Part shown: positions 16,927 through 35,431 of the stretch, piece after piece
Numbering within the stretch: position 1 is the first letter of the stretch
How the letters are laid out: each line of letters begins with the position of its first letter
DNA from: Clarkia xantiana subsp. parviflora
Taxonomy: Eukaryota; Streptophyta; Magnoliopsida; Myrtales; Onagraceae
DNA length: 64,000 bases
Reading direction: 5' to 3'
Assembly (NCBI GenBank): GCA_036873135.1
Contig: JAPTYO010000010.1
Span: 18,407,772-18,471,771 of the forward strand
The notes under the pieces: model-generated
Database searches by the model: none
What the model was told of the DNA's origin: nothing
What the model saw: the letters and a program-made list of their open reading frames with translations, nothing else
Translations under genes and position numbers: made by a program

Positions 16927-17051
16927 TAAAGCCCTATTGGGTTTGGACCCTAGAAGGGAAATATTAAATCTAATGACACGTGTCAAAATCTTAACTGTGA
17001 GGCACGATATAGGGCAGAAAATCTGAATCCGAAAAGAGAAGGCTTCCCATT

Positions 17052-18000
17052 TGATGGATATACGCCCAATTTGAACCCGTTGACTTCCGAACCGTTGTAT
17101 TTTTATCATCCCATTACCGATTGTAAATCGAAACTTCAACCCGAACACTTCGCGAACACATCAACGGCTCGGACGAGGCCGGAGCGCTCGTCCGGCCGAG
17201 ACAAACTCACCTAGGTGAGGTTGGGTGGCCACACCCGACCTCCCCTAAGAGAGATCGGGTCAGCCAACCCGATCTCTCCTAGGGGAGATCGGGTGGACCA
17301 ACCCGATCTCTCCTAGGAGAGATCGGGTCGGCCAACCCGATCTCTCCTAGGAGAGATCGGGTCGGCCAACCCGATCTCTCCTAGGCCGATCTCTCCTAGG
17401 AGAGATCGGGTCGGCCAACCCGATCTCTCCTAGGAGGGATGAGGTTGGCCAACCCCATCCTCCCTAGGAGGGGTTGGGTGCCCTCACCCAACCCCTACCC
17501 TTGGGGGTCGGACTTCTCCCCCCCCCCCCCAAGGGCCCCTGCGCCATTTTCGGACACCCACACTCGGTTCACATCGCCTACCTTCTCCGTATCCTAAGGT
17601 CTTAATTATGTACTTAAAGGTTAATTAAGTGTGTTTAAAGGTTAACGATGTCATTAAGCCACCTTGATGACACCGTTGCCTATAAATACCCCACCTTCAC
17701 AACTCATTTGATCATCTTGGCAATTGGGATTATTTTGCTCTGACATCTCTCTAGTTTATCTCTCTAAGAAGAATACTGACTTAGGCATCGGAGAGGGTTC
17801 ACCAGGCACCACCCCCCCCCCTCCGTGTCTGGTACTGCCCCTTCTGCAGGGTAGAAGGAGAGAAGAAGCAAAGGAAGGAAGGAAGGAAGGAAAGACATAG
17901 GTTAAGACAGGGCAACTCAGGAATACCGGATCACACACATCCTCAGTAAGGAGCGAGATCAAAGCCGACCACCCGTTGACCTAGATCTCATAACCTAACA
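17052..18000 (+). repeat. Outer Tat 5' LTR (LTR-A), 949 bp
   Basis: It runs from TGATGGATATACG to CCTAACA. It contains a block of interleaved palindromes (17214-17480), a C-run (17519-17530), a CTATAAATA TATA box (17690-17698) likely driving transcription, and a GGAAGGAAGG microsatellite. It is 109 bp longer than its partner LTR-D, mostly from extra palindrome units. Confidence 0.93.
17214..17480. repeat. palindromic tandem repeats in LTR-A
   Basis: Units of about 34-35 bp alternate two perfect palindromes, TCTCCTAGGAGA and CGGGTCGGCCAACCCG or close variants. About six units are present, one of them truncated. Equivalent blocks are at 20453-20600 (LTR-B), 29971-30180 (LTR-C) and 34750-34910 (LTR-D), each with a different unit number. 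Confidence 0.88.
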
Positions 18001-18014
18001 CTTGGCGCCGTCTA

Positions 18015-19526
18015 AATCCAAAAAAATGCGCATTTGGGGTGCAATCAGGGAAATTTTTAGGCTTCATGGTAAGCCAGCGAGGCATAGAGGTAAACCCCGA
18101 AAAACTTCAAGCAATTGAAGAAATGCAGTCACCTACAAAGCACAAAGAGGTTCAACGACTGAACGGGAGGTTGGCAGCCCTTAACAGATTCCTATCCAAA
18201 ATAGGAGACAAGGCATTACCCTTCTTTGAGGTACTAAGGGCAAACAAGAAATTTGAATGGACACCGAGATGTGAGGAAGCCTTCCAGCAACTCAAGCAAC
18301 ACCTAAAAACACTACCGCCCTTAGCAAAGCCTACACCAGGGGAGCCCCTCTACCTCTACATCTCCGTGAGCAATGTGGCAGTAAGCTCAGTGCTAATTAA
18401 AGAAGAAAACGCTGCACAGTTGCCGGTATACTTCGTAAGCAAAACATTGGCAAAGTATGAGATCAACTACTTGCCAATAGAAAAGTACCTCTATGCACTG
18501 ATTATATCAGCGAGAAAGTTGAGACCGTATTTTCATGGGCATGAAGTAACAGTCCTCACAGACCAACCATTGAAACACCTCCTACAGAGACCAGACACAT
18601 CGGGAAGACTGACCAAATGGGCAATTGAGCTAAGTGAGTTTCGCATTCATTTCGCCCCAAGAACAGCCATAAAGGGTCAGGCTCTAGCATATTTTATCGC
18701 CGAATTCACTGGAATTAATCCAGACGAAGACTTGGGAGAAGTCAAAACTACATGCGAGGCAAGTAGTAGTCAGGAGAAACAATCAGAAGAATTATGGGAG
18801 ATGCATACTGATGGGTCATCCAACGGAGGAGGTTCAGGTGCAGGCCTCTTACTATACCCACCAAACAGCGATACACCTATGCGCTATGCCATGGCACTTA
18901 CCTTTAAGGCAACAAACAATGAGGCTGAGTACGAAGCACTAATAACTGGCCTGAGAATAGCCAAAGGAGTAGGGGCAAGGCATTTAAGGGTCAAGTGTGA
19001 TTCTCAACTAGTTGTCAATCAAGTGAAAGGAATCTACACTGCAAAGTCCGAAAACATGCAAAGATACTTACAGCAAGCCAAAGACCTGATAAAGAGCTTC
19101 CAAAGCTTCGACATTGAGTCAGTCCCAAGAGAACAAAACCAAGAGGCAGACGCCTTAAGTAAACTAGCCTTAGGGGCAGAAGCAGGCAAAGAGGTTCACT
19201 TCATAGAGCAAAGAATGCAATCAGTGATAGAACAAATGGAGGTTCTAGCAATAGATGAAGCAGAAGCCTGGATGACACCAATGCGACAATACATCATGGA
19301 AGGAAAGCTCCCAAAAGATAAGGTGGAAGCAGTCAAGATTGAAAGGATGGCTAGGAATTACGCAGTGATGGACAATGAACTCTACAAGAAAGGATACTCC
19401 ACACCTTTCCTCAAATGCATAGCATACCCAGAAACAGAGAGAGTGCTTGCAGAACTCCATGAGGGAGATGCGGGGTGCCATGAAGGAGCACGGTCAATAA
19501 GCCGAAAGGTCTACAACCTAGGATAA
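18015..19526 (+). pseudogene. Outer Tat pol: RT end, RNase H and second RNase H
   Basis: The open frame starts abruptly 14 bases after the LTR with RT codons (NPKKCAFGV, then GFMVSQRGIEVNPEK), so the 5' part of pol has been deleted; there is no natural start codon. Next come the RT thumb/connection (QRLNGRLAALNRF), the first RNase H (LYLYISVSNVAVSSVL; TDQPLKHLL) and the Tat-specific second RNase H. The second RNase H has its acidic residues in HTDGSSNGG, NNEAEYEAL, CDSQLVVNQV and EADALSKL. The integrase zinc-binding region then starts (LHEGDAGCHEGA). The frame ends at TAA 19524-19526, where family members have an aromatic residue before YWP. Otherwise about 500 codons are unbroken. Confidence 0.9.
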
Positions 19527-20276
19527 TATTGGCCATCAATGAGCAAAGAAGTAGCAGACTTGGTACAAAAATGTGATCACTGCCAAAGGTACTCCAGAAA
19601 TATAACAGCCCCACCAGCAAAGCTAAGCTCCATTTCAGGAGCATGGCCTTTCGCGCAATGGGGGATTGATTTGATAGGCCCCCTACCAAAAACAAAAGGT
19701 CAGAAGACTTGCATAATTGTTGCAATAGACTACTTCTCCAAGTGGATAGAAGCAAAGGCAATGGGGAAGACAACAGACGACCAAGTCGTCAATTTCATCC
19801 AATCTCACATTGTCTCGAGGTACGGGGTGCCAAGAGCAATAATAAGTGACAATGGCCCACAATTCAAGAGCAAGAAATTGCAGTGGTATTGCGAAAGACT
19901 GAATATAGACCACCGTTTCGCATCAGTAAAGCACCCTCAGACAAACGGACAGGTAGAATCGGCAAACAAGATAGTGCTAGATGGCCTAAAGAAACGACTC
20001 CACGCCACCAAGGGAAGTTGGGTAGATGAGCTGGAAAATGTTCTATGGGCAGTACGGACAACACCAAAGATATCCACAGGAGAAACGCCATTTGGCCTAG
20101 TGTACGGAACTGAAGCGGTGGCACCAGCAGAAATAGCTATACAATCACTGAGGACCAAGTACTTTGAGGAGCATGAGAACAATAAAGCAAGACTTTTAGA
20201 TTTAGACATGGTGGAGGATAAAAGGTGGAATTCAGAAGAAGCACAGACACGAATGCGCCTTGTCTCAGCAAGATAC
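19527..20276 (+). pseudogene. Outer Tat integrase, 5' part, cut by the inner element
   Basis: The reading frame is the same as the upstream pol frame, separated only by the single TAA. The zinc-finger Cys pair is CDHCQRY. The catalytic core carries all three acidic residues: GIDLIGPLP, ISDNGPQF and TNGQVESAN. After TPFGLVYGTEAV the frame reaches ...VSARY, where the inner element is inserted. It resumes exactly in frame at 30696. Before that insertion the integrase was uninterrupted apart from the stop at 19524. Confidence 0.9.
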
Positions 20277-21100
20277 TGATGGATATACGCCCAATTTGAA
20301 CCCGTTGACTTCCAAACCGTTGTATTTTTATCGTCCCATCGCCAATTATAAATCGAAACTTCAACCCGGACACTTCGCGAGAACATCGACGGCTCGGACG
20401 GGGCCGAAGCGCCCGTCCGACAGAGGCGAACTCACCTAGGTGAGGTTGGGTGGCCACACCCGACCTCCCCTAGGGGAGATCGGGTTGGCCAACCCGATCT
20501 CTCCTAGGAGAGATCGGGTCGGCCAACCCGATCCCTCCTAGGAGGGATGGGGTTGGCCAACCCCACCCTCCCTAGGAGGGGTTGGGTGTCCTCACCCAAC
20601 CCCTACCCTTGGGGGTCGGATTTCTCCCCCCCCAAGGGCCCCGACACCACCTTCGGACTCCCATGCTCGGTCCACTCCGCCTACCTCCTCCGAATCCTAA
20701 GGTCTTAATTATGTGCTTAAAGGTTAATTAATTGTGTTTAAAGGCTAACGATGTCATTAAGCCACCTTAATGACACCGTTGCCTATAAATACCCCACCTT
20801 CACATCTCATTTGATCATCTTGGCCATTTGGACATTTTAGCTCTGACATCTCTCTAGCTTTATCTCTCTAGAAAAATACTGACTTAGGCATCGGAGAGGG
20901 TTCACCAGGCACCACCCCCCCCTCCGTGTCTGGTATTGCCCCTTCTGCAGGGTAGAAGGAGAGAAGGAGCAAAGGAAGGAAGGAAGGAAAGAAGAAGATA
21001 AGTTAAGGCAGAGCAGCTCAGGAACATCGGATCACACACATCCCCCGTAAGGAGTGAGATCAAAGCCGACCCCCGTTGACCTAAATCTCATAACCTAACA
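20277..21100 (+). repeat. Inner Tat 5' LTR (LTR-B), 824 bp
   Basis: TGATGGATATACG to CCTAACA, with GCCTATAAAT TATA box at 20781-20790, about three palindrome units (20453-20600) and a GGAAGGAAGG tract. It is nearly identical to LTR-C except for two missing palindrome units. Confidence 0.93.
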
Positions 21101-21118
21101 CTTGGCGCCGTCAGTGGG
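21101..21118 (+). other. Inner Tat primer-binding site
   Basis: CTTGGCGCCGTCAGTGGG follows the LTR directly; TTGGCGCCGTC is a primer-site type common in plant Tat and Athila elements. The outer element keeps only the first 12 bases of this motif (18001-18012) before its internal deletion. Confidence 0.75.
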
Positions 21119-21151
21119 CTTCGAACAGAAAGCCTGGCTATTACACGAGCT

Positions 21152-21829
21152 ATGACGAACAGTAGGGTGTCCAGGCCCCAACACCCACCCGGGGGCAATG
21201 GGCGGAGAAGAGAACCCATACCCCCAGGGAGGCGGCCTAACCCTGGGAAGCAGCCAATGCATCCAGAGCCCCAAGAAATACCACAACCTCCTCAGCAACA
21301 GAACAACCAGGAGGGAGGACCTTCACGCCCAGCTGGGGCTGAGTCCTCCACAGCCTCCACCCCCCGGGCAAGAAGGCCACAGAGAGCAAGAGGACAACAG
21401 GGAGTGCCTTCCCACAACACAGCACCCCCTGAGGGATACTATTATGAGGAGCAACCCCAAAGGTACCCATATGGGATGCCGGCACAAAGAGATGATAACC
21501 GCGCCCACACAGCATATGCAAGGCCGGCATACACCCAAGGGACTTACACTGAAGCTCATGAGGAGGAGCAGATCCCGACAGAAGAGCACTACTCGCACCC
21601 TCGAGCAGGGCAGCGAGAGGAACAAAGAAGATATTACCAGGAGCCACCCCCAGAGGGAAGGCAACAGTTCGTGCCTCCTAGGCAACAGCAGAACAACAGG
21701 CTTACACCCCGCTTGGGGAGGAAAGACAAGCAAGACCCCCAAGGAGGCAGGACTTCTATGAAGCACCCCAGCAGGCGTATCAAGAGTACACCTACAGTCC
21801 ATACCAGCAGGGACAAGGGAACCCAGTAA
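21152..21829 (+). pseudogene. Inner Tat gag N-terminal region, proline/glutamine-rich
   Basis: ATG at 21152 opens a 225-codon frame rich in Pro, Gln, Arg and Gly (low-complexity N-terminal gag). Near 21715-21760 the homologous reading continues in the frame used by the next ORF (FYEAPQQAYQEYTYSP at about 21750-21800), so a one-base indel separates the gag head from the gag body. Without it the gag would run continuously into 21880-24405. This could be a decay mutation in this copy or a programmed frameshift; nothing in the sequence argues specifically for the latter. Confidence 0.7.
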
Positions 21830-21879
21830 GCCCAGTCTACAACTACAATGGATATCAGAGGGATTATACTCCGGCACAG

Positions 21880-24405
21880 GTGATGATCACCCCGGAGGAG
21901 ATAGAAGCCATGATAACCCGGAAATTGAATGAGTCAAAGAAACCCAGCCTGCATTGTCTAAGTGACAAGACGAACCACCCTTTCACAAGGGAGCTGGAGA
22001 TGAACAGGGTGCCAGACTCCCTGCACACTGTGCAAATTGCAAAGTACAATGGGAAGGGAGACCCCCTAGAGCATATCCAACAGCATGAGGCCTCTCTATT
22101 CGGGAGGACAACTGATGAAAGATACAAGGCACTCCTTTTCCCAAACACCCTATCAGGGGTGGCCTCACATTGGTTCTTCAGCCTGCCCTCTGAGAGCATC
22201 CACTCATGGAAGCAGCTAAAAGCTAAGTTTCTGCAGAGATACCTAGGGGAGAGGAAACTCCTCAAGGGAACAGGCTCCATTGATGACGTAAAACAAGAAT
22301 ACGATGAATCCCTGGCCAGCTACTATACTAGGTTCAACCAGAATATTGCAGACATCCAGGGAGACATCACTGAAGGGGAGATAATCCGAGCCTTTATCAG
22401 AAACTTAGGTCGCTTTGGGTCAACATTGGCTGAAAAGATGGCCAAAAAGCCAGCAAGCACCTTGGAGGAGCTTGCAGGGAGAGTTAAAACGCATATTGAC
22501 CTTGAGAGGCACAGGGCAAGCAAGAAGGCCAAAATTCAGGCAACCAAGGAGGATACTCAAAGGCCAAACAAAGGAAAGCCACCCCAGGCACCACAGCATG
22601 CAAGGCAGCAGGAATGGCGTCCGCCACAGCAAAGAAACCAAATGGGTGAACCCTTAAAGGCTAGAGAAATAAACGTCATTAAGTTCATCCCACTAAACGC
22701 CACTCCAGCCACCGTACTTAGAGAGATGCGGAACCAAAAGCTTTGGTCACCCCCTGCAAGGTGGAGAGCCCCAATGGTAGGAAATCACAAAGATAGATGG
22801 TGTGACAACCATGAGGCTTATGGTCACGACACAAATGAATGCTTTAGCCTAAAGTTAAGCATAAACAACATCGTCCAGAGGGGAGAACTGAAGCAATTCG
22901 TAGACCATGGGGGCAACAATATGCAACTAGGGCCATCACAGAAGGACAAGGACAAGGGCAAGGGAAAGATAGACTACAACCCTCCACCCAACAAAAGAGG
23001 AGTCATAAATATGATACATGGGGGAGTAGCATCGGGTGGCCCAACTGCTAATGCAAGAGAGGTCTATGCATCCAAGCTAAGCTCAGTGCCAAGGTGGAGA
23101 AAAAGGCCAAGAGAAGGAGAAGAAGTGAAGATCGAGTTCTCGGAGAAGGACAAGAGCCACATCGTCTTTCCACATGACGATGCTCTAGTTATTACTTTAG
23201 ATATAGACAATTTTGATGTAAAGAGAATTTTGGTGGATGGGGGCAGCTCAGCTGACCTCCTAAGCCTGAGAGTGTTGGAAGAGATAGGGAAAACCAAAGC
23301 AGACATCAAACCGGTCAACTTCCCTCTAGTTGGCTTCTCAGGGGCAACAAGTTACCCCCTGGGAATGATAACCCTACCAGTGACCATGGGCCAAGGATGG
23401 ACCCAGCTGAAGGTAAATGTCAATTTCTTGGTGGTTGAAACCCTGGGAGCCTACAATGGGATCCTAGGAAGGACAACCATAAACCCATATGAAATAGTGC
23501 CATCCACTGTTCACCAGAAGTTGAAGTATATCACGGAGAACGGGGTTGGAGAGGTCCTGGGTGATCAACGCACCGCAAGGCAATGCTACGTCAACTCAAT
23601 GAGACGTGGATCACACGGGACAGATACAGTGGCTGTAGTCATGGTACGGGCCAACCAGGACAGAAGAAGGAGGGGAAAGAGACAAAGGCAAAGAAGGAGG
23701 AGGAGTGGAATAACACTCCGTTTGAGCAGGCAGTTTTTTCAAACAGTGCCTACAAGGAGACACAGGAGCAAGGCTGTGAAGGTGACATCCATACCTTGGC
23801 AGCCAGACACCATAGTAGGGAACAGGACAAGGAACTCCATCCTAAAAGGTTTCCGCTACATAGATGATATCAAGCAAATGCCGCAGGAGTCTATATCAAG
23901 CTATTTCCAGAGATTCTTTGATTATGGTGCCAACATGGACATCACAAGGGGAGAAGCAGTCAGAGCATTCATCAGAAACATGCATCCAAGTTCATTCGAG
24001 GCCTATGGAGGGCTCTATGAAATGGTCATGACGAGCACAATGAGAGAGCTCAAGACAAAGCTGGACAGGGCATTTGAACAAGAGGCGGAACAGTTGGATG
24101 AAGTTCCAGAAAGAGGAAGAGAAACAGACACATTGGGAGGAGGTGTCAATTTCACATTCACACCCCTCACACTCAGCATAGAAGAAATTTTCCACAAGCA
24201 CCTCAAGCAAGAGCTACCAACATGCAGGGAGGAAGGCAAGGCCTTCCTAGGAAGAGATGCACAGGGTTGGTGTGAATACCATGGGACCTGGGGGCATCAA
24301 ACCAATGACTGCATGGTGTTGAAGGTGGAAGTGGAAGAAGTAATTTACAATGGAGGCTTCAAGGAGTACGTGGCAACAGACACAATGGCCACCCCATATC
24401 CTTAG
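21880..24405 (+). CDS. Inner Tat Gag-protease-Gag' fusion polyprotein
   Basis: This is one open frame of 841 codons. Residues about 20-230 hold the retrotransposon gag domain (SGVASHWFFSLPSESIHSWK; FNQNIADIQGDITEGEIIRA). A Cys-His knuckle WCDNHEAYGHDTNEC is near residue 307. An aspartic protease domain covers residues about 435-560, with active-site LVDGGSSADLL (near 450) and LGAYNGILGRT (near 527); DGGSS replaces the usual D-S/T-G triad. After a basic linker (about 590-640) comes a second, shorter gag-like region: LKGFRYIDDIKQ (near 655), EAVRAFIRNM, and a second knuckle WCEYHGTWGHQTNDC (near 797). RT, RNase H and integrase, which normally follow protease, are missing. The upstream gag head is in another frame, so the true start is uncertain. 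Confidence 0.85.
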   Translation: MMITPEEIEAMITRKLNESKKPSLHCLSDKTNHPFTRELEMNRVPDSLHTVQIAKYNGKGDPLEHIQQHEASLFGRTTDERYKALLFPNTLSGVASHWFFSLPSESIHSWKQLKAKFLQRYLGERKLLKGTGSIDDVKQEYDESLASYYTRFNQNIADIQGDITEGEIIRAFIRNLGRFGSTLAEKMAKKPASTLEELAGRVKTHIDLERHRASKKAKIQATKEDTQRPNKGKPPQAPQHARQQEWRPPQQRNQMGEPLKAREINVIKFIPLNATPATVLREMRNQKLWSPPARWRAPMVGNHKDRWCDNHEAYGHDTNECFSLKLSINNIVQRGELKQFVDHGGNNMQLGPSQKDKDKGKGKIDYNPPPNKRGVINMIHGGVASGGPTANAREVYASKLSSVPRWRKRPREGEEVKIEFSEKDKSHIVFPHDDALVITLDIDNFDVKRILVDGGSSADLLSLRVLEEIGKTKADIKPVNFPLVGFSGATSYPLGMITLPVTMGQGWTQLKVNVNFLVVETLGAYNGILGRTTINPYEIVPSTVHQKLKYITENGVGEVLGDQRTARQCYVNSMRRGSHGTDTVAVVMVRANQDRRRRGKRQRQRRRRSGITLRLSRQFFQTVPTRRHRSKAVKVTSIPWQPDTIVGNRTRNSILKGFRYIDDIKQMPQESISSYFQRFFDYGANMDITRGEAVRAFIRNMHPSSFEAYGGLYEMVMTSTMRELKTKLDRAFEQEAEQLDEVPERGRETDTLGGGVNFTFTPLTLSIEEIFHKHLKQELPTCREEGKAFLGRDAQGWCEYHGTWGHQTNDCMVLKVEVEEVIYNGGFKEYVATDTMATPYP

Positions 24406-24669
24406 TTTCATATCTAGCACTTTGCATGTTTCACCTTTACAAGCTTTTCAAAAACAACTTTGGAGAAGGAGAACTCACGAAGTTACTCCAACTCTACAAC
24501 TATCTTTCATTCCTACAAAGGATGTCTTGGTGCACCAAGGCATCCCAAGTGTACAAAAACATGAATGCTCCTAAGGGAGTAGTAGTTACTCAAAAGTATT
24601 TTCCAGTGAATGCAGTGGTATAACCACGAAGTTATCCTTACACAGATATGACTTCAAGTCAATGACAGG
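24406..24669 (+). other. noncoding segment shared with the outer element
   Basis: Starting CCATATCCTTAGTTTCATAT, this segment matches 30945-31217 of the outer element at most positions, including GAGAAGGAGAACTCACGAAG and the stretch before the hairpin array. In the outer element it follows the integrase stop codon. It therefore marks the junction where pol has been lost from the inner element. Confidence 0.75.
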
Positions 24670-25230
24670 TTCGACGCCCCCAAGAGCGTATCTTGAGAGT
24701 AGTTTTCATACTACGACATTCGACGCCCCCAAGAGCGTATCTTGAGAGTAGTTTTCATACTACGACATTCGACGCCCCCAAGAGCGTATCTTGAGAGTAG
24801 TGTTCATACTACGACCTTCGACGCCCCCAAGAGCGTATCTTGAGAGTAGTTATTACACTACGACCTTCGACGCACCAAGAGCGTATCTTGAGAGTGGTTT
24901 CCAAAAACTACGAACTTCGACGCCCCCAGGAGCGTATCTTGAGAGTAGTATTCATACTACGACCTTCGACGCCCCCAAGAGCGTATCTTGAGAGTAGTTA
25001 TTACACTACGAATTCGACGCACCAAGAGCGTATCTTGAGAGTGGTTTCCAAAAACTACGATTTCGACGCCCCCAGGAGCGTATCTTGAGGTAGATTTGCA
25101 ACCTACCAGATTCGACGCCCCCAAGAGCGTATCTTGAGGTAGAAAAAACACTACCAGTTCGACGCCCCCAAGAGCGTATCTTGAGGTAGATTTCAAACTA
25201 CCAGTTCGACGCCTACCAGGAGCGTATCTT
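24670..25230 (+). repeat. tandem array of about 12 x 48-bp hairpin repeats (inner Tat)
   Basis: Each unit contains TTCGACGCCCCCAAGAGCGT and ATCTTGAG, followed by a variable short inverted repeat such as GTAGT-TTTCAT-ACTAC. In the last units the hairpin changes to GGTAG-...-CTACC. The array ends in a longer unit with TTTGGTCTAAC. It lies between the sense coding region and the 3' end of the antisense gene. The outer element carries a collinear array with the same number and order of units (31218-31780). Confidence 0.9.
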
Positions 25231-25450
25231 TGGTCTAACCTGAGCCCTCCGGGAGCCTATCCTGTGAAACGTTAAGTGCCGTCCGAGAGCCTGTCTCGTG
25301 AACAGATTTTGACACCCGTCAAGAACGTATCGGTGGACTAACCTGTGCCCTCCGGGAGCCTATCCTGTGAAACGTTAAGTGCCGTCCGAGAGCCTGTCTC
25401 GTGAACAGATTTCGACGCCCACCAAGAGCGTATCTTTGGTCTAACAGTAC
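25231..25450 (+). repeat. two longer repeats following the hairpin array (inner Tat)
   Basis: A roughly 104-bp segment (CTAACCTGWGCCCTCCGGGA ... CGTGAACAGATTT) occurs twice in a row, near 25234 and 25338. The outer element has it once (about 31786-31860). The motif 'preposition-like' GAGCCTRTCYYGTGAA appears twice within each copy. Confidence 0.8.
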
Positions 25451-25864
25451 AACGTATACCGTATAAGGGGTATCAGAAGAGGTCATCATACCATGCTTAG
25501 AAGGATACCATGAGAAAGAAATTTCTAAGTAAAGTAATGTGAAGAACAAGTAATGTTTTTTCTTTATGAAATGACAGGTATGACATGAAGGAAACCACAA
25601 AAGAAGGATAAGTAAAGGAAATATACCAAGGGAAGGGTCCATACCCAAAAAGCCATACACAAGGCATAGGGAGGCATCATGAGAAGAGATATATACAAAA
25701 GCATGAGAAGCACTAATATAAAGGCAAACAAACCACGCAGTCAACAACACAATGCGGCAAAGGAAAGTAACAACAAACACCATCACAATCTCAAGAGACA
25801 CTCAACCCATACAAGGGGAAAAGGAGTGTAGTTATATATACAAGGATAGTATGAGATAAACAAG

Positions 25865-28261
25865 TCAGTCAGAACCTTCGGGGGAGTCACCCTCACCCCC
25901 TGAAGCTGAACCGCCAGCGGAAATAGATGAGGAAGAGGAGTCTGAGGTACCAATCTCCACAGGTGTAGCATCCACCTGGGCTGGGGCAGCCTCGTCTGCA
26001 ACAGCAGCCTGGCCCATCAGAACAGTCGCGTAGCCAGTTGCATATGGCCCAAAGTCACCAAGGTCACCAAACGGGAACTGAGGATCAATCCGGTATATGT
26101 GATCAACCAAATACTCACCGAATTGGTTCATCTCCTGAGTGAGACGCGTGCTATAATCGGCGGTGAAGGCAGAGGAGGCCTTGTACTCAGATACCGCGAC
26201 AGCCCTCTCCTCCGCCCGACACTTAGTCTCCAACCTCCGCAGCTCCTCAGAATGAAGCGACGCAGCAACCTCAGCTTCCCGACGCAAACTGCCCACAGTG
26301 GCTTCAAGCAAGGACACCTGGCCCTGGAGCTCCTGCAGCCTCAAATCAGATATACGCGCCTTCTCAGCAGCAGTGGCGACCTCCGCCTTGAGAGAGACCT
26401 GGCTGTCCTCAAGGGTCTTCCTCTCGTCAGATAACTCGAGAACGAGCGAGGACATGTTCACCATGTCAGACATACCCTAACAATACAAACAAGGGATGAG
26501 TAACCGAAAGATAGCCATTATGAAAGTAATGAAAGGAAAGCAAGGAACAACTCACAGGTGCATAACGAGAGAGTACCCCCTGAACAAAGCGCCGAGTCTC
26601 CCCAGGAGACTTGGGCGGAGCAACACGATCGCCAGGGGGGATGGCGCCGCGGAGTACGCGGACGCCAACCTCAGGAGTCCGCAAAGAGGAGGTGCTATCG
26701 AGGTGGAACTCCTTCAGACCAGCGAAGGGAGTCCACTCAGACCCAATAACATCTTCATCAGTGAGCCGTTCGAAATCCTTCCGACTTAAAGTCGGAGGCC
26801 CACCTACACAAGCAAAGCAAGTCAAAGGATAATATAAACATAGAAGGATCAGCAACAAGGTAGAGATCATACCTGAGGACCGTGCCCTCGGCTGGGGGGC
26901 AGGGGAACCACCACCAGCAGGTCGCTTCCCTTTGTCAGCCAGGGAAGGCACCTCTTCGACCACCATCTCCTTATCACGAGATAGGGTCGGAGGACGAGCA
27001 GTAGGCGAAGCAGGATCCACAGCCTTCTTTCTCTTAGCAGCCAAGGCCCCGGCCTCAGAATCAGATCTCCGCGGCTTGGACTTGGAAGGTCCAGAATCTC
27101 TGCCGACGGAGACGACCCTCTCAGTCACCAAGGGGGAGCGCCCTAGTAAGGTAAGAAAAACAAGATAAGGAAAACATAAGTTACACCATAAAGAAGCAAA
27201 TAGGAGAAAGCATACCAGAGGCCCCAGCCTTCTTCCCAGGCAGGGGGGATTTCTTCAAAGCAGAACTAGAAGGAGCCTTCCTCTTGCTCAGATCAACAGG
27301 GGCTCCCTGCACGTTATAGGTTTTTCCATGAAACCAACCTACAAAGGAAGAGCAGAAGGTAAATAAAGATGGAAAGACCAAGTGACATACCGAACCCCCG
27401 GAGTCAGGAGTCAGACTGATCCCGACCTCGTAAAGATCCGTCTCAGTCACTAAGGACACGGGACAGTAAGACCGGGTCCTGTTGCTCTCGTGAATGATCT
27501 TCATAGTCTTCAAATCAACCGAAGAGAACTCTCCAAAAGCAGGCCAACCATCGGACCGATCCTCATTCAAGACCGACCAAGTGACGTATCGGTCCGTAAT
27601 GAAGAAGTAATGCTTAGCCCAGTGACTGGCCGAATTGTCAATCTGGGTCACGAAACGGAGGGAGGTATCCCACTCGATCCCACTCAACCCGAAATCAGAA
27701 AATCGGGGATCTTTGAAGGTCGGATGGCGAGTCACGAAACTCGCAAACCCCACCCTCGTCCGGTACTGGAACCGATAGAAGCATCGGAATAGAACGAGAG
27801 AGTACTTCCAGGAGTACCAATGGCACAATACCCGGAAGCCCACCCAGACACGGAGGGCACTGGGGGCAAGGTTCACAGGAGAAATCCTGAAGAACCTGCT
27901 CAACTCTATAAGCTCGTCACAGTAAGGAAGCCTCAGCCCGAATCGGATCTGAGAGGGGTACACGGCGACCTTCCCTATAGGAGGCTCCGTCACCGTCTCG
28001 CGAGTATTCCCCAAGGAGGGGAGAAAAGGATACAGAGGTTCATCTAGGGGACTGATATCTCCTAGGGTAACATGTTCGTTGTAATCGGACCTAGTGATAT
28101 GGTTCTCTGACAGAATATCAAGACCTAAGGCAAAGATAGCAAGAAACCCCAAAGCACGAATCAAATTTCGACTAACACCCCAATGAAGGCCACGATACTA
28201 AGCTAGCAATAGGAAAGGAAGTAACGCGACCGAAAAGGAAGAGAAAAAGGAACTCACTCAT
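25865..28261 (-). CDS. Antisense gene of the inner Tat element: five exons, PF04195-like domain plus coiled coil
   Basis: Transcribed opposite to gag. Proposed exons are 28261-28258 (if the ATG at 28261 is the start), 28124-27216, 27142-26873, 26803-26556 and 26476-25865 (stop). Introns of 133, 73, 69 and 79 bp all have GT-AG ends, and every junction keeps the frame (phases 1, 1, 1, 0), predicting about 680 residues. Exon 2 carries VYPSQIRFGLRLPYCDELIE and NLAPSALRVWVGFRVLCHWY, resembling the plant 'putative gypsy-type transposon' family (PF04195). Exons 3-4 are basic and low-complexity (KPRRSDSEAGALAAKRKK). Exon 5 is a long Leu/Glu/Arg-rich coiled coil ending in an acidic Ser/Gly tail. Antisense ORFs are known in Tat-clade elements but their function is not. 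The start is uncertain: the frame is open upstream to 28405. Confidence 0.78.
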
Positions 28262-28405
28262 CCTTCGGAGAATACGGCGTCTCTGAAGAGTCTGCGTACG
28301 TGGACACCACCAGGAGTATAGTACCTGCCACGACACGACAAATATCAAGACAAGGAAAATTTCCGAAGAACCGGAAATACTCCGACACCCGACCAACGAC
28401 AACAA

Positions 28406-29230
28406 TCAAAGATCCAAAGACACCCAGCAAAGATAGTCAACATGAGTCAAGCACACCACGACAACCAAGTTGAATAATTTTATCCGAGCCTAAGGTCGGG
28501 TCTTGGAAAAAATTACCATTATACCCTCCAACAAGGATTAATACACCAACGGCAATACGACATCAAATTCAAGACCGGAATAGCCCAATCGGACAAGAAA
28601 CCATATCCGGACGACCGACAAACATTTTTCCCCAAAATCCACAACTACCAACGGCTATCTACGGCAATCCCACATTTAATTAAATTTCGACAATCGGCAA
28701 TCAAGCATCGGCAATCAAATATCAACGATTCAAAAATCGACGTTTTACGCGGTAATGAAAAGGAAAAGAGCGGACCTTCGGAAAACCCGACCCGATATGG
28801 TAAACGGGTCCGGATTTCGAATTTAAAGACGCCCGAAAATCAGTCCCTCGCCGGAATTTGGGCCTTGCCGTCGCCGGAGATGATCTCGCCCGCCCCACCG
28901 TCGCCGGAGAGCCCTGCACGTCACACCGGAATCGTCCCCCTTCACCGTCGACTGCCCTCGATGGACCAGCTGCCGTCCTCGCCGGCAGCGACCTCGCCGT
29001 CGCCTGGCCGTCCCTCCGCGCCGCTGGTGGTTGGGCTGCCGTCCCAGCCAGCTGCCGCCTCTGTCCGACGCCGGGGTCCCCTTTTCTTGGCCGGTCGGAA
29101 TTTCTGGTTCACCACTAAAAATTCTGGCCGGTCCTCCTCCTTGGGGGTGCTCTCCAACCTTTCTTGCTCTCCAAGGGTAAGTGAAGAAGGAAGATGGTGG
29201 CTAGGGTGACTCTTGGAGGTATTTTTCTAA
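28406..29230 (-). other. 5' flank of the antisense gene with a G+C-rich block
   Basis: Positions 28850-29200 are strongly G+C rich, with repeated GTCGCCGG motifs and a 114-codon plus-strand open frame (28865-29209) of Pro, Ser and Ala-rich composition. I see no known domain. The block is absent from the outer element. It could be the promoter and leader of the antisense gene, or a captured host segment. Confidence 0.4.
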
Positions 29231-29797
29231 CTCTCCTTTTTTATGATAAAAGGATGATAGGGTTTTTTAGAGGGTTTTAATCACCACCATCCATCTAGCC
29301 TTAAATAAAATCTAAGGGCCAAGGAAAAACCATCATTTTTATCCATTTCACCTATAGCTAAGTATATATTCCCATACTTAGAAAAATTATCAAGATAGTT
29401 TTATTTTTGAGCATTCCATACTTAGGAAAATTTTTGGCCAAAATTAAATTTCTCCTCATTTAGATGGAATCCCGGCATGAAATTGAAGCGTAAGTTATTT
29501 AGTTGCATTCGTATCGCACCCCTGTGCAAGTTTGTGTTTTTTGAATATACACCTGTAGCAGAGATAAGTTTATTACTCCCGCCTCAGACGGACGCGTGCC
29601 TAGGCACACGTCCGTGCTACTCTGACGTTTACAATTCCTCTATCTCATTAGACAGGGGGGCAGAGTCAGAGGCACGCATCCATGGGTAAGCAGGCATTCA
29701 GACAAGAAGGTAAAATCCCGGTTTCAAATTGCGCGTGTCATACCATCCTGAAATAGAGTCAATCAAGGGTTAAGCCATTGGTTGACTCGGGGGCATG
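29231..29797 (+). other. 3' untranslated region and polypurine-like tract of the inner Tat
   Basis: From about 29430 the sequence is nearly identical to 34195-34586 of the outer element, ending in GACTCGGGGGCATG directly before the LTR. It includes a near-perfect palindrome (29589-29613). No coding potential. The shared 3' end probably carries plus-strand priming and packaging functions. Confidence 0.7.
29589..29613. repeat. 12-bp-arm inverted repeat near the 3' LTR
   Basis: CGGACGCGTGCC and GGCACACGTCCG form a hairpin with one mismatch and a two-base (TA) loop, about 185 bp before LTR-C. The outer element has the identical hairpin (about 34379-34404) at the same distance from its LTR. Confidence 0.75.
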
Positions 29798-30690
29798 TGA
29801 TGGATATACGCCCAATTTGAACCCGTTGACTTCCAAACCGTTGTATTTTTATCGTCCCATCGCCAATTATAAATCGAAACTTCAACCCGGACACTTCGCG
29901 AGAACATCGACGGCTCGGACGGGGCCGAAGCGCCCGTCCGACAGAGGCGAACTCACCTAGGTGAGGTTGGGTGGCCACACCCGACCTCCCCTAGGGGAGA
30001 TCGGGTCAGCCGACCCGATCTCCCCTAAGAGAGATCGGGTTGGCCAACCCGATCTCTCCTAGGAGAGATCGGGTCGGCCAACCCGATCTCTCCTAGGAGA
30101 GATCGGGTCGGCCAACCCGATCCCTCCTAGGAGGGATGGGGTTGGCCAACCCCACCCTCCCTAGGAGGGGTTGGGTGTCCTCACCCAACCCCTACCCTTT
30201 GGGGTCGGATTTCTCCCCCCCCAAGGGCCCCGACACCACCTTCGGACTCCCATGCTCGGTCCACTCCGCCTACCTCCTCCGAATCCTAAGGTCTTAATTA
30301 TGTGCTTAAAGGTTAATTAATTGTGTTTAAAGGCTAACGATGTCATTAAGCCACCTTAATGACACCGTTGCCTATAAATACCCCACCTTCACATCTCATT
30401 TGATCATCTTGGCCATTTGGACATTTTAGCTCTGACATCTCTCTAGCTTTATCTCTCTAGAAAAATACTGACTTAGGCATCGGAGAGGGTTCACCAGGCA
30501 CCACCCCCCCCTCCGTGTCTGGTATTGCCCCTTCTGCAGGGTAGAAGGAGAGAAGGAGCAAAGGAAGGAAGGAAGGAAAGAAGAAGATAAGTTAAGGCAG
30601 AGCAGCTCAGGAACATCGGATCACACACATCCCCCGTAAGGAGTGAGATCAAAGCCGACCCCCCGTTGACCTAAATCTCATAACCTAACA
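29798..30690 (+). repeat. Inner Tat 3' LTR (LTR-C), 893 bp
   Basis: Same ends as LTR-B and TATA box CTATAAATA at 30371-30379. It has two more palindrome units than LTR-B (69 bp). It is followed by GATAC, the second copy of the target duplication, then by resumed integrase codons of the outer element. Confidence 0.93.
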
Positions 30691-30695
30691 GATAC

Positions 30696-30920
30696 TACAA
30701 CCGCCAAGTCAAGGAGAGACAATTCCACGTAGGAGAACTGGTACTAAGAAGGAATGAGTTCTCACACTTAGACCAAGTCAGAAAATTATCTCCGAAGTGG
30801 GAAGGACCATACAAGATAGCGTCAGTTCCCTACATAAACGCTTACCGCCTCGAAGATGGGGAGGGGTATATCTCCACAAACACCTTCAGTGGAGAGCACC
30901 TAAAGAAGTACTACGTATAA
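30696..30920 (+). pseudogene. Outer Tat integrase, C-terminal part
   Basis: Resumes in the frame left at 20276 (codons for YNRQVKERQFHVGELVLRR) and ends with KLSPKWEGPYKI and EHLKKYYV before TAA at 30918-30920. PKWEGPY is the usual end-of-integrase GPY-type motif in gypsy elements. No chromodomain follows, as expected for Tat elements. Confidence 0.9.
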
Positions 30921-31217
30921 GAAGAAAGCACAAGCAAAAGACCATATCCTTAGTTTCATATTTCATATTTTGCATGTTCCAGCTTTCCAAATTTTCAAAA
31001 AACAACTTTTGAGAAGGAGAACTCACGAAGTTACTCCAACTCTACAACTATCTTTGATTCCTACAAAGGATGTCTTGGTGCACCAAGGCATCCCACGTGT
31101 ACAAAAACATGAATGCTCCTAAGGGAGTACAAGTTACTCAAAAGTATTTTCCAGTGAATGTAGTGGTATAATCACGAAGTTATCCTTACACAAATATAAC
31201 TTCAAGTCAATGACAGG

Positions 31218-31860
31218 TTCGACGCCCCCAAGAGCGTATCTTGAGAGTAGTTTTCATACTACGACATTCGACGCCCCCAAGAGCGTATCTTGAGAGTAGT
31301 TTTCATACTACGACATTCGACGCCCCCAAGAGCGTATCTTGAGAGTAGTGTTCATACTACGACCTTCGACGCCCCCAAGAGCGTATCTTGAGAGTAGTTA
31401 TTACACTACGACATTCGACGCCCCCAAGAGCGTATCTTGAGAGTGGTTTCCAAAAACTACGAACTTCGACGCCCCCAGGAGCGTATCTTGAGAGTAGTGT
31501 TCATACTACGACCTTCGACGCCCCCAAGAGCGTATCTTGAGAGTAGTCATTACACTACGAACTTCGACGCACCAAGAGCGTATCTTGAGAGTGGTTTCCA
31601 AAAACTACGAATTCGACGCCCCCAGGAGCGTATCTTGAGGTAGATTTGCAACCTACCAGATTCGACGCCCCCAAGAGCGTATCTTGAGGTAGAAAAAACA
31701 CTACCAGTTCGACGCCCCCAAGAGCGTATCTTGAGGTAGATTTCAAACTACCAGTTCGACGCCCACCAGGAGCGTATCTTTGGTCTAACCTGAGCCCTCC
31801 GAGAGCCTATCCTGTGAAACGTTAAGTGCCATCCGAGAGCCTGTCTCGTGAACAGTTTTC
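31218..31860 (+). repeat. tandem hairpin array of the outer Tat
   Basis: About 12 units of 47-49 bp (TTCGACGCCCCCAAGAGCGT core), collinear with 24670-25230, followed by a single copy of the longer repeat. Differences between the two arrays include an extra CC in unit 5 and several substitutions. The hairpin in each unit is retained. Confidence 0.9.
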
Positions 31861-32276
31861 GACGCCCACCAAGAGCGTATCTTTGGTCTAACAGTACAAC
31901 GTATACCGTGTAAGGGGTATCAGAAGAGATCATCACACCATGCTCAGAAGGATACCATGAGAAAGAAATTTCTAAGTAAAGTAATGTGAAGAACAAGTAA
32001 TGTTTTTTCTCTAGGAAATGGCAGGTATGACATGAAGGAAAGCACGAAAGAAAGATAAATAAAGGAAACACACCAAGGGAAGGGTCCATAACCAAAGAGC
32101 CATACACAAGGCATAGGGAGACATCATGAGAAGAGATATAAGCACACGGCCATGTATACAACGAGTAGAGACAAGTGTATCAGACAAAGATGGCAACACT
32201 AAGAAAGGTGGAGTTTTAAACTCTAAAGACAACCACAACTCACAAACACACGAGACTACCACAAGAAATAGGGGTA

Positions 32277-33340
32277 CTATCCCCTCATCTTCGCAATATG
32301 CTTAATAGCAAAGTCTGACAAATCACCAAGTCGAGAGAAAGGAAAGTCAGGAGCAATCATGTGAATACGCTCAAGAATTTCCTTCAAAGAAATACGTTTC
32401 GCCACAGAGCAGCGAACGTCGATAGCAGCCTGATAAACGGAGGAGGCCATATACTCAGCAATGGCACACTCCTTCGCCTCCATACGAAACATTTCCTCCA
32501 GAGAGATTAACTCAGCAGCCCGGAGTGTCTCATCACGATAAGACCTTTGTCTCAACGCCTCAACCTCTTCATTGAGAAGAACAATGCGACCCTCCAAGTC
32601 TCGGCACCACAAATCGGTGATGCGACTATGCTCCAAACAGCTAATAAGACTGGATTTAAGGGAGACACAAATGTCCTCGTACACCTTCCTCTCCTCAGCA
32701 AGATCAATAGCAAGGGTGGATAAATTAACAAGGTCGGCCATACCCTGCAACAAAAACAAAAGATGAGACGGATAACGCACGGAGAAGAAATATGCTAAAG
32801 GATAAAACGGTTACATTACAGAAGCATAGCGAGCCAACACATCACGAGCCAACTCATAAGTTGCCTCCGACCCTTTGGACAGGGACACACGATCGGCAGG
32901 AGGAACAGCAGACTGCAGAACACGAACTCCAACCTCAGGAGTTTGCAAAGAAGATTGGTTGTCAAAACGAGCCCCACGCCCATAATAAGGTGCCCACTCA
33001 GACCCAACAATTCCATCAACAGGTGGACGAGACAGCTCCTTCCGACTCAGACGCGGAAGACGAAGTCTACCTATAACAAAGCACAGAGTAAATACCAATG
33101 TACACTAAGGAAACTCAGAGGCTCAAGGACTCACCAAACAAGGAAGAAGGAAAAGATGGCTCCCGGACCTTCGATTGGGGGGCATCAATATAGAAAGAAG
33201 ATGGCACCCTAACGTCACCACCCTTACCTCCAGTTAGAGAACACCTCCCCGCACCATAGAAAACCGATCTTTTTGCAATCGAAGGTCCGGTCCCAGAATT
33301 AACTACTCCCACACGTACTGGCCTCTTACTCCTCATCAAT
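32277..33340 (-). CDS. Antisense gene of the outer Tat element, 3' exons
   Basis: Three exons match the last three of the inner antisense gene. Exon 3' (to about 33133) has SKRPVRVGVVNSGTGPSIAK. Exon 4 (about 33072-32822) has EVGVRVLQSAVPPADRVSLS, matching EVGVRVLRGAIPPGDRVAPP in the inner copy. Exon 5 (about 32742-32277) is the coiled coil starting GMADLVNLSTLAIDLAEER. Donor GTGAGT, acceptor TTATAG, donor GTAATG and acceptor GTTGCAG keep the frame at the same relative positions. The acidic Ser/Gly tail of the inner protein is missing (stop after HIAKMRG). The PF04195-like exon is not found; upstream lies a 67-bp tandem repeat instead. The real 5' end is unknown. Confidence 0.65.
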
Positions 33341-33487
33341 CACCGGAGAGTTCTGCTGATCGAAAAAAAAAAACACAGGCTTAGCCTAAAGAAAACAGAA
33401 AGCGAACAGTGGAAAAGAGATACAAACTCATTCCCCTAAAAAGATGGACACAAGGTCAAAAGACAAGAATAGAAAGACGACAAGAAA

Positions 33488-33755
33488 GACCCCACCAGCC
33501 AACAGCCAGAGGCAGGGGGGCAGGGGGAGATAGTAATAACCCCCAGCATAAGGAGACCCCACCAGCCAACAGGCAGAGGCAGGGGGGCAGGGGGAGATAG
33601 TAATAACCCCCAGCATAAGGAGACCCCACCAGCCAACAGGCAGAGGCAGGGGGCAGGGGGAGATAGTAATAACCCCCAGCATAAGGAGAGAGACACCACT
33701 GGCCAACTAGCAGAGACAGGGGGCAAAAGGAGATAATTATAATCCCAATAGGGAG
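33488..33755. repeat. 67-bp tandem repeats, about 3.9 copies
   Basis: Units start at 33488, 33555, 33622 and 33692. The core is CCCCACCAGCCAACAGGCAG, AGGCAGGGGG, AGATAGTAATAACCCCCAGC. The first three are nearly identical and the fourth is diverged. This gives artificial long open frames on the minus strand. The array sits upstream of the retained exons of the outer antisense gene. Confidence 0.9.
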
Positions 33756-34586
33756 GACTTCGCCCGCCAGTAAGCGGAAACATGAAGATAAAAAGATGAA
33801 AAATGACGAACCAAATAGGACTACATTACCAGGAAGACATACAAATCAAGAACGAGACAAGTAAGGAAACGATTGAAGGAGAAGCAGAATTAAGTCCCTC
33901 AAGAGCAATGCTTACACAAGAGAAGAAACACGTACCTCAACACAACACCCGCCCCGAGAAGTAAGTCCGACTGGAAATTCCACCGTCAAAAAGAAAAGAA
34001 GGGAAAAGAACAACGAGAATGAGGTAATCACTTGCCCTTTTATAGCACAAAGGATTAGGGTTTTTCTAAAGTCGCTAAATCAACACCGTTGAATTTTAGA
34101 AAAGAAAATTTCAAGGGACAAGATTCAAAAACTAGTTCCCGTTAACCACGGTTAAACTCATACTCACCATAGTTAACATCCCCTAAGGTTTATTTCCTAG
34201 TATTCCATACTTAGAAAAAAATTTGGCCAAAATTAAAATTTTCCCTCACTTAGATAGAATCCCGGCACGAAATTGAAGCATAAGTTATTTAGTTGCATTC
34301 GTATCACACCCCTGTGCAAGTGTGTATTTTTTGAGTATGCACCTGTAGCAAAGATAAGTTTATTACTCCTACCTCAGACGGACGCGTGCCTAGGCACACG
34401 TCCGTGCTACTCTGACGTTTACGATTCCTCTATCTCATAAGGCAGGGGGCAGAGTCAAAGGCACGCATCTATGGGTAAGCGAGCATTCAGACAAGAAGGT
34501 AAAATCCCGGTTTCAAATTGCGCGTGTCATACCATCCTAAAATAGAGTCAATCAAGGGTTAGGCCATTGGTTGACTCGGGGGCATG
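33756..34586 (+). other. 3' untranslated region of the outer Tat
   Basis: No coding sequence. From about 34195 to 34586 it matches the inner element's 3' end (29430-29797), including the inverted repeat at 34379-34404 and GACTCGGGGGCATG before the LTR. Confidence 0.7.
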
Positions 34587-35426
34587 TGATGGATATACGC
34601 CCAATTTGAACCCGTTGACTTCCGAACCGTTGTATTTTTATCATCCCATTACCGATTGTAAATCGAAACTTCAACCCGAACACTTCGCGAACACATCAAC
34701 GGCTCGGACGAGGCCGGAGCGCTCGTCCGGCCGAGACAAACTCACCTAGGTGAGGTTGGGTGGCCACACCCGACCTCCCCTAAGAGAGATCGGGTCAGCC
34801 AACCCGATCTCTCCTAGGGGAGATCGGGTCGGCCAACCCGATCTCTCCTAGGAGGGATGGGGTTGGCCAACCCCATCCTCCCTAGGAGGGGTTGGGTGCC
34901 CTCACCCAACCCCTACCCTTGGGGGTCGGACTTCTCCCCCCCCCCCCCCCCCCCCAAGGGCCCCTGCGCCATTTTCGGACACCCACACTCGGTTCACATC
35001 GCCTACCTTCTCCGTATCCTAAGGTCTTAATTATGTACTTAAATGTTAATTAAGTGTGTTTAAAGGTTAACGATGTCATTAAGCCACCTTGATGACACCG
35101 TTGCCTATAAATACCCCACCTTCACAACTCATTTGATCATCTTGGCAATTGGGATTATTTTGCTCTGACATCTCTCTAGTTTATCTCTCTAAGAAGAATA
35201 CTGACTTAGGCATCAGAGAGGGTTCACCAGGCACCACCCCCCCTCCGTGTCTGGTACTGCCCCTTCTGCAGGGTAGAAGGAGAGAAGAAGCAAAGGAAGG
35301 AAGGAAGGAAGGAAGGAAAGACATAGGTTAAGACAAGGCAACTCAGGAATACCGGATCACACACATCCTCAGTAAGGAGCGAGATCAAAGCCAACCACCC
35401 GTTGACCTAGATCTCATAACCTAACA
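34587..35426 (+). repeat. Outer Tat 3' LTR (LTR-D), 840 bp
   Basis: Same ends as LTR-A, with TATA box near 35104-35112 and a C-run of about 20 (34937-34956) that is about 12 in LTR-A. Only two to three palindrome units are present. It is followed by the CCATT duplication. Confidence 0.93.
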
Positions 35427-35431
35427 CCATT

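What the first reader, a model, noticed from the sequence alone, without database searches (positions are those of the whole stretch)
17052..35426. Two complementary halves of one Tat family, one nested in the other
The outer element has the end of RT, both RNases H and integrase but no gag or protease; the inner element has gag and protease but no RT, RNase H or integrase. They share LTR ends, PBS type, 3' hairpin array, antisense gene and 3' region. Exact 5-bp duplications (CCATT outside, GATAC inside) prove two separate insertions. Neither is autonomous as read, so the family may survive partly by complementation, each subtype supplying what the other lacks.
Basis: partly seen in the sequence, partly recalled or inferred. 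Interest (0 to 1): 0.85.

Follow-up and report, generated by a model that had tools for sequence, protein, structure and literature searches.

The report
Jumping gene split into two halves
In this plant-like genome a large family of jumping genes appears to keep its capsid genes on one kind of copy and its copying-and-inserting enzymes on another, so neither kind seems able to move without a partner; such splits are known from maize, but this one also carries an extra second capsid-like piece.

Summary
The nested pair is real: exact 5-bp duplications, shared LTRs, complementary coding content. Genome-wide checks change its meaning.

(1) The outer copy's PBS-to-RT junction occurs once in the 695.6-Mb genome. 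It is a private deletion, at a 6-nt repeat, in a gag-less protease-RT-RNaseH-integrase element.

(2) That gag-less type is not private. An integrase pattern finds 913 sites. Of 40 sampled, 37 lack gag capsid before the protease, 0 show it, 3 are uninformative. In 34 of 35 direct-junction copies an ATG opens the protease frame there.

(3) The inner type is also a large family: 797 gag and 1743 second-gag pattern sites.

(4) No complete copy was seen: of 76 exact gag sites none has an exact integrase site within 58 kb downstream.

Both halves show purifying selection; a third type with the same LTRs lacks gag and pol frames. Mutual dependence is the best explanation but is untested. Split gag/pol families are published for maize (Cinful/Zeon): a new variant of a known kind.

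The parts
17047..17051 (.). outer 5-bp target-site duplication CCATT (5' copy)
35427..35431 (.). outer 5-bp target-site duplication CCATT (3' copy)
17052..18000 (+). outer 5' LTR, with array of 34-bp palindromic units
34587..35426 (+). outer 3' LTR; K2P 0.006 to the 5' LTR
18003..18012 (+). outer PBS (TGGCGCCGTC) fused directly to the RT end; 6-nt repeat CCGTCT at the junction
   Evidence: junction unique in genome; same 6 nt at both sites in L050
18009..19526 (+). end of RT, RNase H and second (archaeal-type) RNase H; in-frame stop at 19524-19526
19527..20276 (+). integrase, interrupted by the inner insertion (includes one copy of the duplicated target)
30691..30920 (+). C-terminal part of the outer integrase, after the inner element
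   Evidence: 98% to L050
30942..31892 (+). outer 3' tandem array (about 49-bp unit)
32277..32780 (-). outer antisense ORF, 167 aa, no Pfam match
20272..20276 (.). inner target-site duplication GATAC (5' copy)
30691..30695 (.). inner target-site duplication GATAC (3' copy)
20277..21100 (+). inner 5' LTR
29798..30690 (+). inner 3' LTR; no substitution to the 5' LTR outside the hairpin array
21152..21829 (+). N-terminal gag ORF, in another frame than the capsid frame
21880..23019 (+). first gag (capsid, nucleocapsid); dN/dS 0.07 against L016
23137..23589 (+). protease (motif DGGSSAD from about 23236, recognised by eye)
23800..24390 (+). second gag-like module (capsid C-terminal half and zinc knuckle), same open frame as the protease; stands where RT-RNaseH-integrase would be
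24394..25340 (+). inner 3' tandem array, 95.8% to the outer one
25865..28164 (-). inner antisense gene region; Transposase_28 (PF04195) in 27181-28164

Best explanation
The window shows one member of each half of a split Tat/Retand-type LTR retrotransposon family. Type G carries gag, protease and a second gag-like module but no RT, RNase H or integrase. Type P carries protease, RT, two RNases H and integrase but no gag; its reading frame starts at an ATG placed right after the 5' leader. Both use closely related LTRs, PBS, leader start and 3' region. Shown: architecture, copy numbers by pattern, recent insertion of members of both, purifying selection on both. Inferred: type G RNA supplies the particle protein, type P RNA supplies the enzymes, both RNAs are packaged through shared leader sequence and integrated through shared LTR ends, so each type depends on the other; a third type with the same LTRs and no gag or pol frame rides on both. 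The outer copy in the window is a dead-end type P copy that lost protease and most of RT by a private deletion between two 6-nt repeats, and a type G copy inserted into its integrase.
For: Type P: 913 integrase-pattern sites, reversed control 0. Of 40 sampled (two sets of 20 out of the 100 listed places) 33 have PBS-leader-protease directly, 4 have a gag N-terminal leader and then protease (L090 and L095 judged by eye), 3 are uninformative, 0 show gag capsid. ATG at the junction in 34 of 35 direct copies (19 of 19, 15 of 16; L082 has ACG). Protease dN/dS median 0.17 over 193 pairs of 21 copies, max dS 0.44. RT-end/RNase H, second RNase H and integrase dN/dS 0.02, 0.10, 0.05, outer against L018. 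Type G: 797 gag and 1743 second-gag sites, controls 0. 7 of 7 type G copies read past the protease have the second gag there and no RT match. 28 of 52 exact second-gag sites on C1-C5 have an exact first-gag site 1455-1466 nt upstream; 12 of the other 24 were read: 11 have the first-gag knuckle region about where expected, 1 (L104) shows an earlier part of gag there. First gag and protease dN/dS 0.07 and 0.08 against L016; second gag no stop in 8 of 8 copies, median dN/dS 0.32. No complete copy: 0 of 76 exact gag sites has an exact integrase site closer than 58.9 kb downstream on the same strand, about 3.5 kb expected; 0 of 20 elements typed from 31 LTR neighbourhoods is complete. Recent movement: inner LTRs and L050 LTRs have no substitution outside the hairpin array. 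Each LTR subtype is seen on both types. Eight third-type copies have the same LTRs and no sense frame over 173 aa.
Against: No expression, packaging or transposition data. Elements of other Tat families (56-67% identical in pol) with gag followed by pol and the same PBS core lie in this genome (L017, L025, L020) and could be the real helper; the stretches read carry stops. The co-occurrence test used only exact-match sites (100 of 913 and 76 of 797), and 0 of 37 still allows up to about 8% complete copies (own arithmetic). Proteases of the two types are only about 50% identical, so compatibility of the halves is not given. Selection on the second gag is weaker (single pairs 0.16-0.81), one short linker comparison gave 2.14 on four differences, and one of the 8 copies (L055) runs into unrelated sequence before the module ends. 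Many copies read are broken: stops in the outer copy, L018 and L050, frame changes in the inner copy and L027, and 5 of 19 direct copies have a stop or frame break within 570 nt.
Confidence: 0.55

Rival explanations
1. Both types, and the third one, are parasites of a more complete but distant Tat family in the same genome; their own genes matter little.
For: Tat elements with gag followed by pol and the same PBS core are present (L017, L025, L020). Parasitism of a Gag-deficient element on a complete relative is documented for BARE2 (PMC3735527, passages).
Against: Coding regions of both types are under purifying selection, while the third type with the same LTRs shows no gag or pol frame. Upstream stretches of those other families share only 23-25-nt matches with this family's LTRs.
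Confidence: 0.2
2. Complete members of this family exist but are few or were missed; type P and type G are successful partial derivatives, as in autonomous/semi-autonomous pairs (Cereba/Quinta, BARE1/BARE2).
For: The samples are limited: 40 of 913 integrase sites and exact-match sites only. BARE2 outnumbers its complete partner BARE1 (PMC3735527, passages).
Against: 0 of 37 informative integrase copies, 0 of 76 exact gag sites and 0 of 20 typed elements are complete. The two types' proteases differ too much to be simple deletions of one recent element.
Confidence: 0.2
3. The pair in the window is just two unrelated deletion derivatives that happen to be complementary.
For: The outer junction is unique and sits at a 6-nt repeat.
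Against: Both underlying architectures recur with shared junctions and spacing.
Confidence: 0.03

Closest known systems
Maize Cinful/Zeon (RLG00001) and the 25 maize families with GAG and POL in separate copies (Stitzer et al. 2021, PMC8547701; section 19 part 1 and passages seen)
   Same: GAG and POL on different copies of one family with shared LTR signals; under 1% of copies with both in those families; the authors say it approaches a mutualism.
   Different: In the parts I saw no second gag module, no start codon at a gag-less junction and no selection test is described; here the two halves also carry proteases about 50% identical.
Retand elements with missing domains (Vicient 2025, PMC11963269; abstract and sections 3, 11 part 1, 12 seen)
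   Same: Lineage features: antisense TRP28 ORF and, in about half, tandem arrays between pol and 3' LTR; gag-less clusters and clusters without RH and INT both listed for Alopecurus.
   Different: In the sections seen the two kinds are not presented as partners and no gag-protease-gag layout is described.
BARE1/BARE2 of barley (PMC3735527, passages)
   Same: BARE2 cannot make Gag, the rest of its frame may be translatable from a later AUG, and its RNA is found in BARE1 particles.
   Different: BARE1 is a complete helper; here no complete copy was found and gag capsid is absent rather than silenced.
Athila of Arabidopsis (Marco and Marin 2008, PMC2410132, passages)
   Same: Pol-less families whose gag is under purifying selection, linked by recombination; cooperation proposed.
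   Different: There all pol-bearing elements also carry gag.
Cereba/Quinta of wheat centromeres (PMC11302176, passages)
   Same: A gag-only partner with shared PBS and LTR ends and an extra domain (DUF1) in its ORF.
   Different: Cereba encodes a full polyprotein with a CR domain; a centromeric family, not Tat (lineage recalled).

Membership tests
Tat/Retand lineage of plant Ty3/gypsy | antisense ORF with Transposase_28 (TRP28, PF04195) between pol and 3' LTR | tested here: met
   27184-28164 minus strand, E 7.5e-6, 26.5 bits against cut-off 26.2; found only in the inner copy
Tat/Retand lineage of plant Ty3/gypsy | tandem repeats in the long pol-3'LTR region (present in about half of Retand clusters) | tested here: met
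   about 49-bp arrays in both copies
Tat/Retand lineage of plant Ty3/gypsy | second RNase H domain besides the RT RNase H (recalled hallmark of Tat) | tested here: met
   RT_RNaseH and RVT_3 in one frame
Tat/Retand lineage of plant Ty3/gypsy | position in an RT tree with Retand references | not tested
   no tree with named references was built
Split gag/pol family (Cinful/Zeon type) | GAG and POL on separate copies with shared LTRs | tested here: met
Split gag/pol family (Cinful/Zeon type) | fewer than 1% of copies carry both | tested here: inconclusive
   0 of 37 and 0 of 76; samples too small for a 1% bound
Split gag/pol family (Cinful/Zeon type) | each half needs the other's protein to move | not testable with these tools
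   needs expression and transposition assays
BARE1/BARE2-type parasite pair | complete helper copies of the same family | tested here: inconclusive
   none found in the samples

The most novel reading that the evidence does not exclude
A truly two-part retrotransposon: no complete element is left, the capsid half and the enzyme half descend from different Tat lineages that captured the same LTR chassis, each half has its own start and stays under selection, and the second gag-like module of the capsid half is a dedicated part of the partnership, for example to bring partner RNA or Pol into the particle.
Probability: 0.3. Interest if true: 0.8.

Novelty: new variant of a known kind. Interest (0 to 1): 0.62.

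Why it matters
Families whose gag and pol live on different copies are a natural test of whether transposable elements can depend on each other rather than only parasitise each other. Here both halves are at high copy number, have recently inserted members and are under purifying selection, and a third type with the same LTRs but no gag or pol frame gives an internal contrast. The gag-protease-gag layout and the ATG at the gag-less junction give concrete molecular predictions. It also suggests that surveys that classify families by RT or by complete elements will miss the capsid half.

Tried and rejected
Rejected: that the outer form is itself mobile (unique junction); that the inner form is a lone deletion (same layout in L016, L027 and the loci of L051-L055); that L050 has two different LTRs (first seen as 81% against 95%; the full alignment shows 99.2% identity); that extra second-gag sites mean a second kind of element (12 of 24 unpaired exact sites read: 11 have a diverged first gag about where expected, the twelfth shows an earlier part of gag).

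Led nowhere: a protein search with the second gag region gave 3374 candidates and no hit at E 0.001 (the collection may hold few plant proteins). Pfam on that region gave only a weak gag match (E 0.07). The gag-less junction pattern and the RT searches did not complete. A first dN/dS count for the outer RNase H part used a wrong frame and was redone.

Limits: sampled integrase sites are exact-match sites on contigs C1-C4 only. Of the 41 long LTR hits (one is the window itself) I looked at 31 neighbourhoods holding 34 of them; 6 were not looked at. Eleven were read by 10-kb stretches and 20 by 900-nt leader reads: 11 third type, 7 type G, 2 type P, 11 without a readable type; that sample used the outer LTR as query and is biased to it. 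L061 is interrupted by a Copia-like insertion (L076, judged by eye); L088 and L096 show unrelated sequence at the expected site and were left as uninformative. The tRNA for this PBS, the rate 1.3e-8 per site per year used, and the protease and knuckle motifs are recalled, not from a call.
Full report
What is there. The window (C10:18407772-18471771 of an unnamed 695.6-Mb assembly; plant by its element content, inferred) holds one LTR retrotransposon inside another. The outer element has LTRs 17052-18000 and 34587-35426 with duplication CCATT; the inner one has LTRs 20277-21100 and 29798-30690 with duplication GATAC. LTR pairs are nearly identical: K2P 0.006 outer, 0.0024 inner, and no substitution outside the hairpin array for the inner one. 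Between the two elements LTRs are about 90% alike, while the 3' array region is 95.8% alike, a first sign of exchange between copies.

Coding content. The outer element reads PBS, end of RT, RNase H, second RNase H, integrase; there is one in-frame stop at 19524-19526 and the inner element interrupts the integrase. The inner element reads N-terminal gag (21152-21829), then in another frame gag capsid and nucleocapsid, protease, and a second gag-like module up to 24390.

The outer form is private. A 28-nt pattern over its PBS-RT junction, with up to 3 mismatches, has one match in the genome, itself. A close relative, L050, is 98.6% identical in the shared pol part and 98.3% in the 3' region and shows the same 6 nt (CCGTCT) at the PBS and in RT, exactly where the outer copy is fused. 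The outer copy therefore most likely lost its leader, protease and most of RT in one event between short repeats, by template switching or illegitimate recombination (inference).

The gag-less parent type is not private. L018/L019 (duplication TTATG) and L050 (duplication AAGCT) are LTR-PBS-leader-protease-RT-RNaseH-RNaseH-integrase-array-LTR elements without gag. L018 has one in-frame stop near the start and a shortened integrase end; L050 has two stops in pol. An integrase pattern gives 913 sites with none in the reversed control. I read two systematic sets of 20 from the 100 listed places. First set, 1000 nt each: 17 direct leader-protease junctions, 2 with a gag N-terminal leader of about 320 nt before protease, 1 interrupted by a Copia-like element. 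Second set, 120 nt each: 16 direct, 2 with the longer leader (judged by eye), 2 uninformative. So 37 of 40 lack gag capsid before the protease, 0 of 40 show it, 3 are uninformative. The protease frame begins with ATG at the junction in 34 of 35 direct copies examined: 19 of 19 (17 sampled plus L050 and L018) and 15 of 16 (L082 has ACG). Five of the 19 carry a stop or frame break in the first 570 nt. Over 21 protease copies (including the 2 longer-leader ones) the median dN/dS is 0.17 in 193 pairs with at least 5 synonymous differences, and the largest dS is 0.44. Between the outer copy and L018 dN/dS is 0.02, 0.10 and 0.05 for RT-end/RNase H, second RNase H and integrase.

The gag type. Seven copies found through LTR hits (L016, L027 and the loci of L051-L055) were read past the protease; 7 of 7 have the second gag there and none shows RT. 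Pattern counts are 797 for the first gag and 1743 for the second, reversed controls 0. Of 52 exact second-gag sites on C1-C5, 28 have an exact first gag 1455-1466 nt upstream. Of the other 24, I read 12 at the expected place: 11 show the first-gag knuckle region with 79-98.5% nucleotide and 91-100% protein identity, and the twelfth (L104) shows an earlier part of gag. Against L016, dN/dS is 0.07 for the first gag, 0.08 for the protease part and 0.34 for the second gag; against the closer L027 the values are 0.20, 0.10 and 0.32, with 2.14 on four differences in the short linker. Over 8 copies the inner-type protease has median dN/dS 0.11 (two stops in L027, frame breaks in L027 and L053), and the second gag has no stop in any copy, median 0.32 (single pairs 0.16-0.81) and dS up to 0.52; one copy, L055, runs into unrelated sequence before the end of the module, which inflates these upper values.

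No complete copy in the samples. Among 76 exact first-gag sites and 100 exact integrase sites on C1-C4, no first-gag site has an integrase site downstream on the same strand closer than 58.9 kb; a complete element would show about 3.5 kb. Of 31 LTR neighbourhoods, 20 could be typed: 11 third type, 7 gag type, 2 gag-less type, 0 complete. These samples do not exclude complete copies at a few percent.

The third type. Elements of about 8-9 kb with related LTRs, leader, array and 3' end show no gag or pol frame; the longest frame of 110 aa or more in eight copies is 194 aa on the minus strand, and an antisense frame of 140-180 aa recurs. Seven of these eight keep a weak protease-like match of 32-38% identity. 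They show what this chassis looks like where gag and pol are not kept. That both coding types keep low dN/dS is therefore informative.

Origin of the halves. Where both types can be compared in protein, at the protease, they are only about 50% identical, while the inner protease is 57-59% identical to proteases of other Tat elements in the same genome. LTR subtypes are found on both types: L016 (gag type) carries the outer subtype at about 96%, and sampled gag-less copies L062 and L073 carry inner-type LTR ends at 96%. The halves thus look like mosaics that share cis sequences, as expected if both RNAs are handled by the same proteins and exchange sequence by template switching (inference).

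Mechanism. I think it most likely that type G supplies particles and type P supplies enzymes, that both RNAs enter the same particles through shared leader sequence, and that the third type rides along. Shown: anatomy, pattern counts, selection, recent insertion. Inferred: co-packaging and dependence. The main rival is a distant Tat family as helper; such elements with gag followed by pol exist (L017, L025, L020) with the same PBS core, though the stretches read carry stops, and their LTR regions share only 23-25-nt matches with this family.

Known work. Stitzer et al. 2021 (PMC8547701; section 19 part 1 and passages) describe Cinful (polyprotein) and Zeon (GAG) in maize as one split family and report 25 families with GAG and POL in separate copies. 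Vicient 2025 (PMC11963269; abstract, sections 3, 11 part 1, 12) lists gag-less Retand clusters and ones without RH and INT. Marco and Marin 2008 (PMC2410132, passages) report pol-less Athila families with gag under selection, with all pol-bearing elements carrying gag. BARE2 (PMC3735527, passages) and Quinta (PMC11302176, passages) are pairs with a complete partner. So the principle is known. What I did not find in the parts seen, nor in the listings of my ten paper searches, is the gag-protease-gag layout with both modules under selection, or a start codon at a gag-less junction; those searches were few, did not target these points one by one, and the library is partial.

Noticed in passing
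17200-17540, 20430-20620, 29950-30200, 34730-34930: Each LTR carries an array of 34-bp palindromic units whose number differs between the two LTRs of one element although they have few or no substitutions (824 against 893 bp inner, 949 against 840 bp outer); the array seems to change length during or soon after transposition.
   Followed up: partly
L011, L013, L015, L021, L022, L023, L026, L029: A third type of about 8-9 kb with the same LTRs, leader, array and 3' end but no gag or pol frame; a recurring antisense frame of 140-180 aa and, in 7 of 8, a weak protease-like match.
   Followed up: partly
L055, about position 868 (minus strand): A gag-type copy whose second gag changes into unrelated sequence before its end: another junction downstream of the second gag.
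   Followed up: no
L060, L066, L090, L095: A second gag-less leader form: part of the gag N-terminal region (about 320 nt in L060 and L066), then protease, with ACG in place of the junction ATG where readable.
   Followed up: partly
L018:1-1237 and L019:1099-3214: The gag-less element L018 sits inside another Tat element of a different family (62-75% identical in pol).
   Followed up: no
14529-16579 and 43624-46185: Frames that look by eye like remnants of Copia-type elements on either side of the nested pair.
   Followed up: no
33487-33686: Three 66-67-bp tandem units with only a few differences in the outer antisense region.
   Followed up: no
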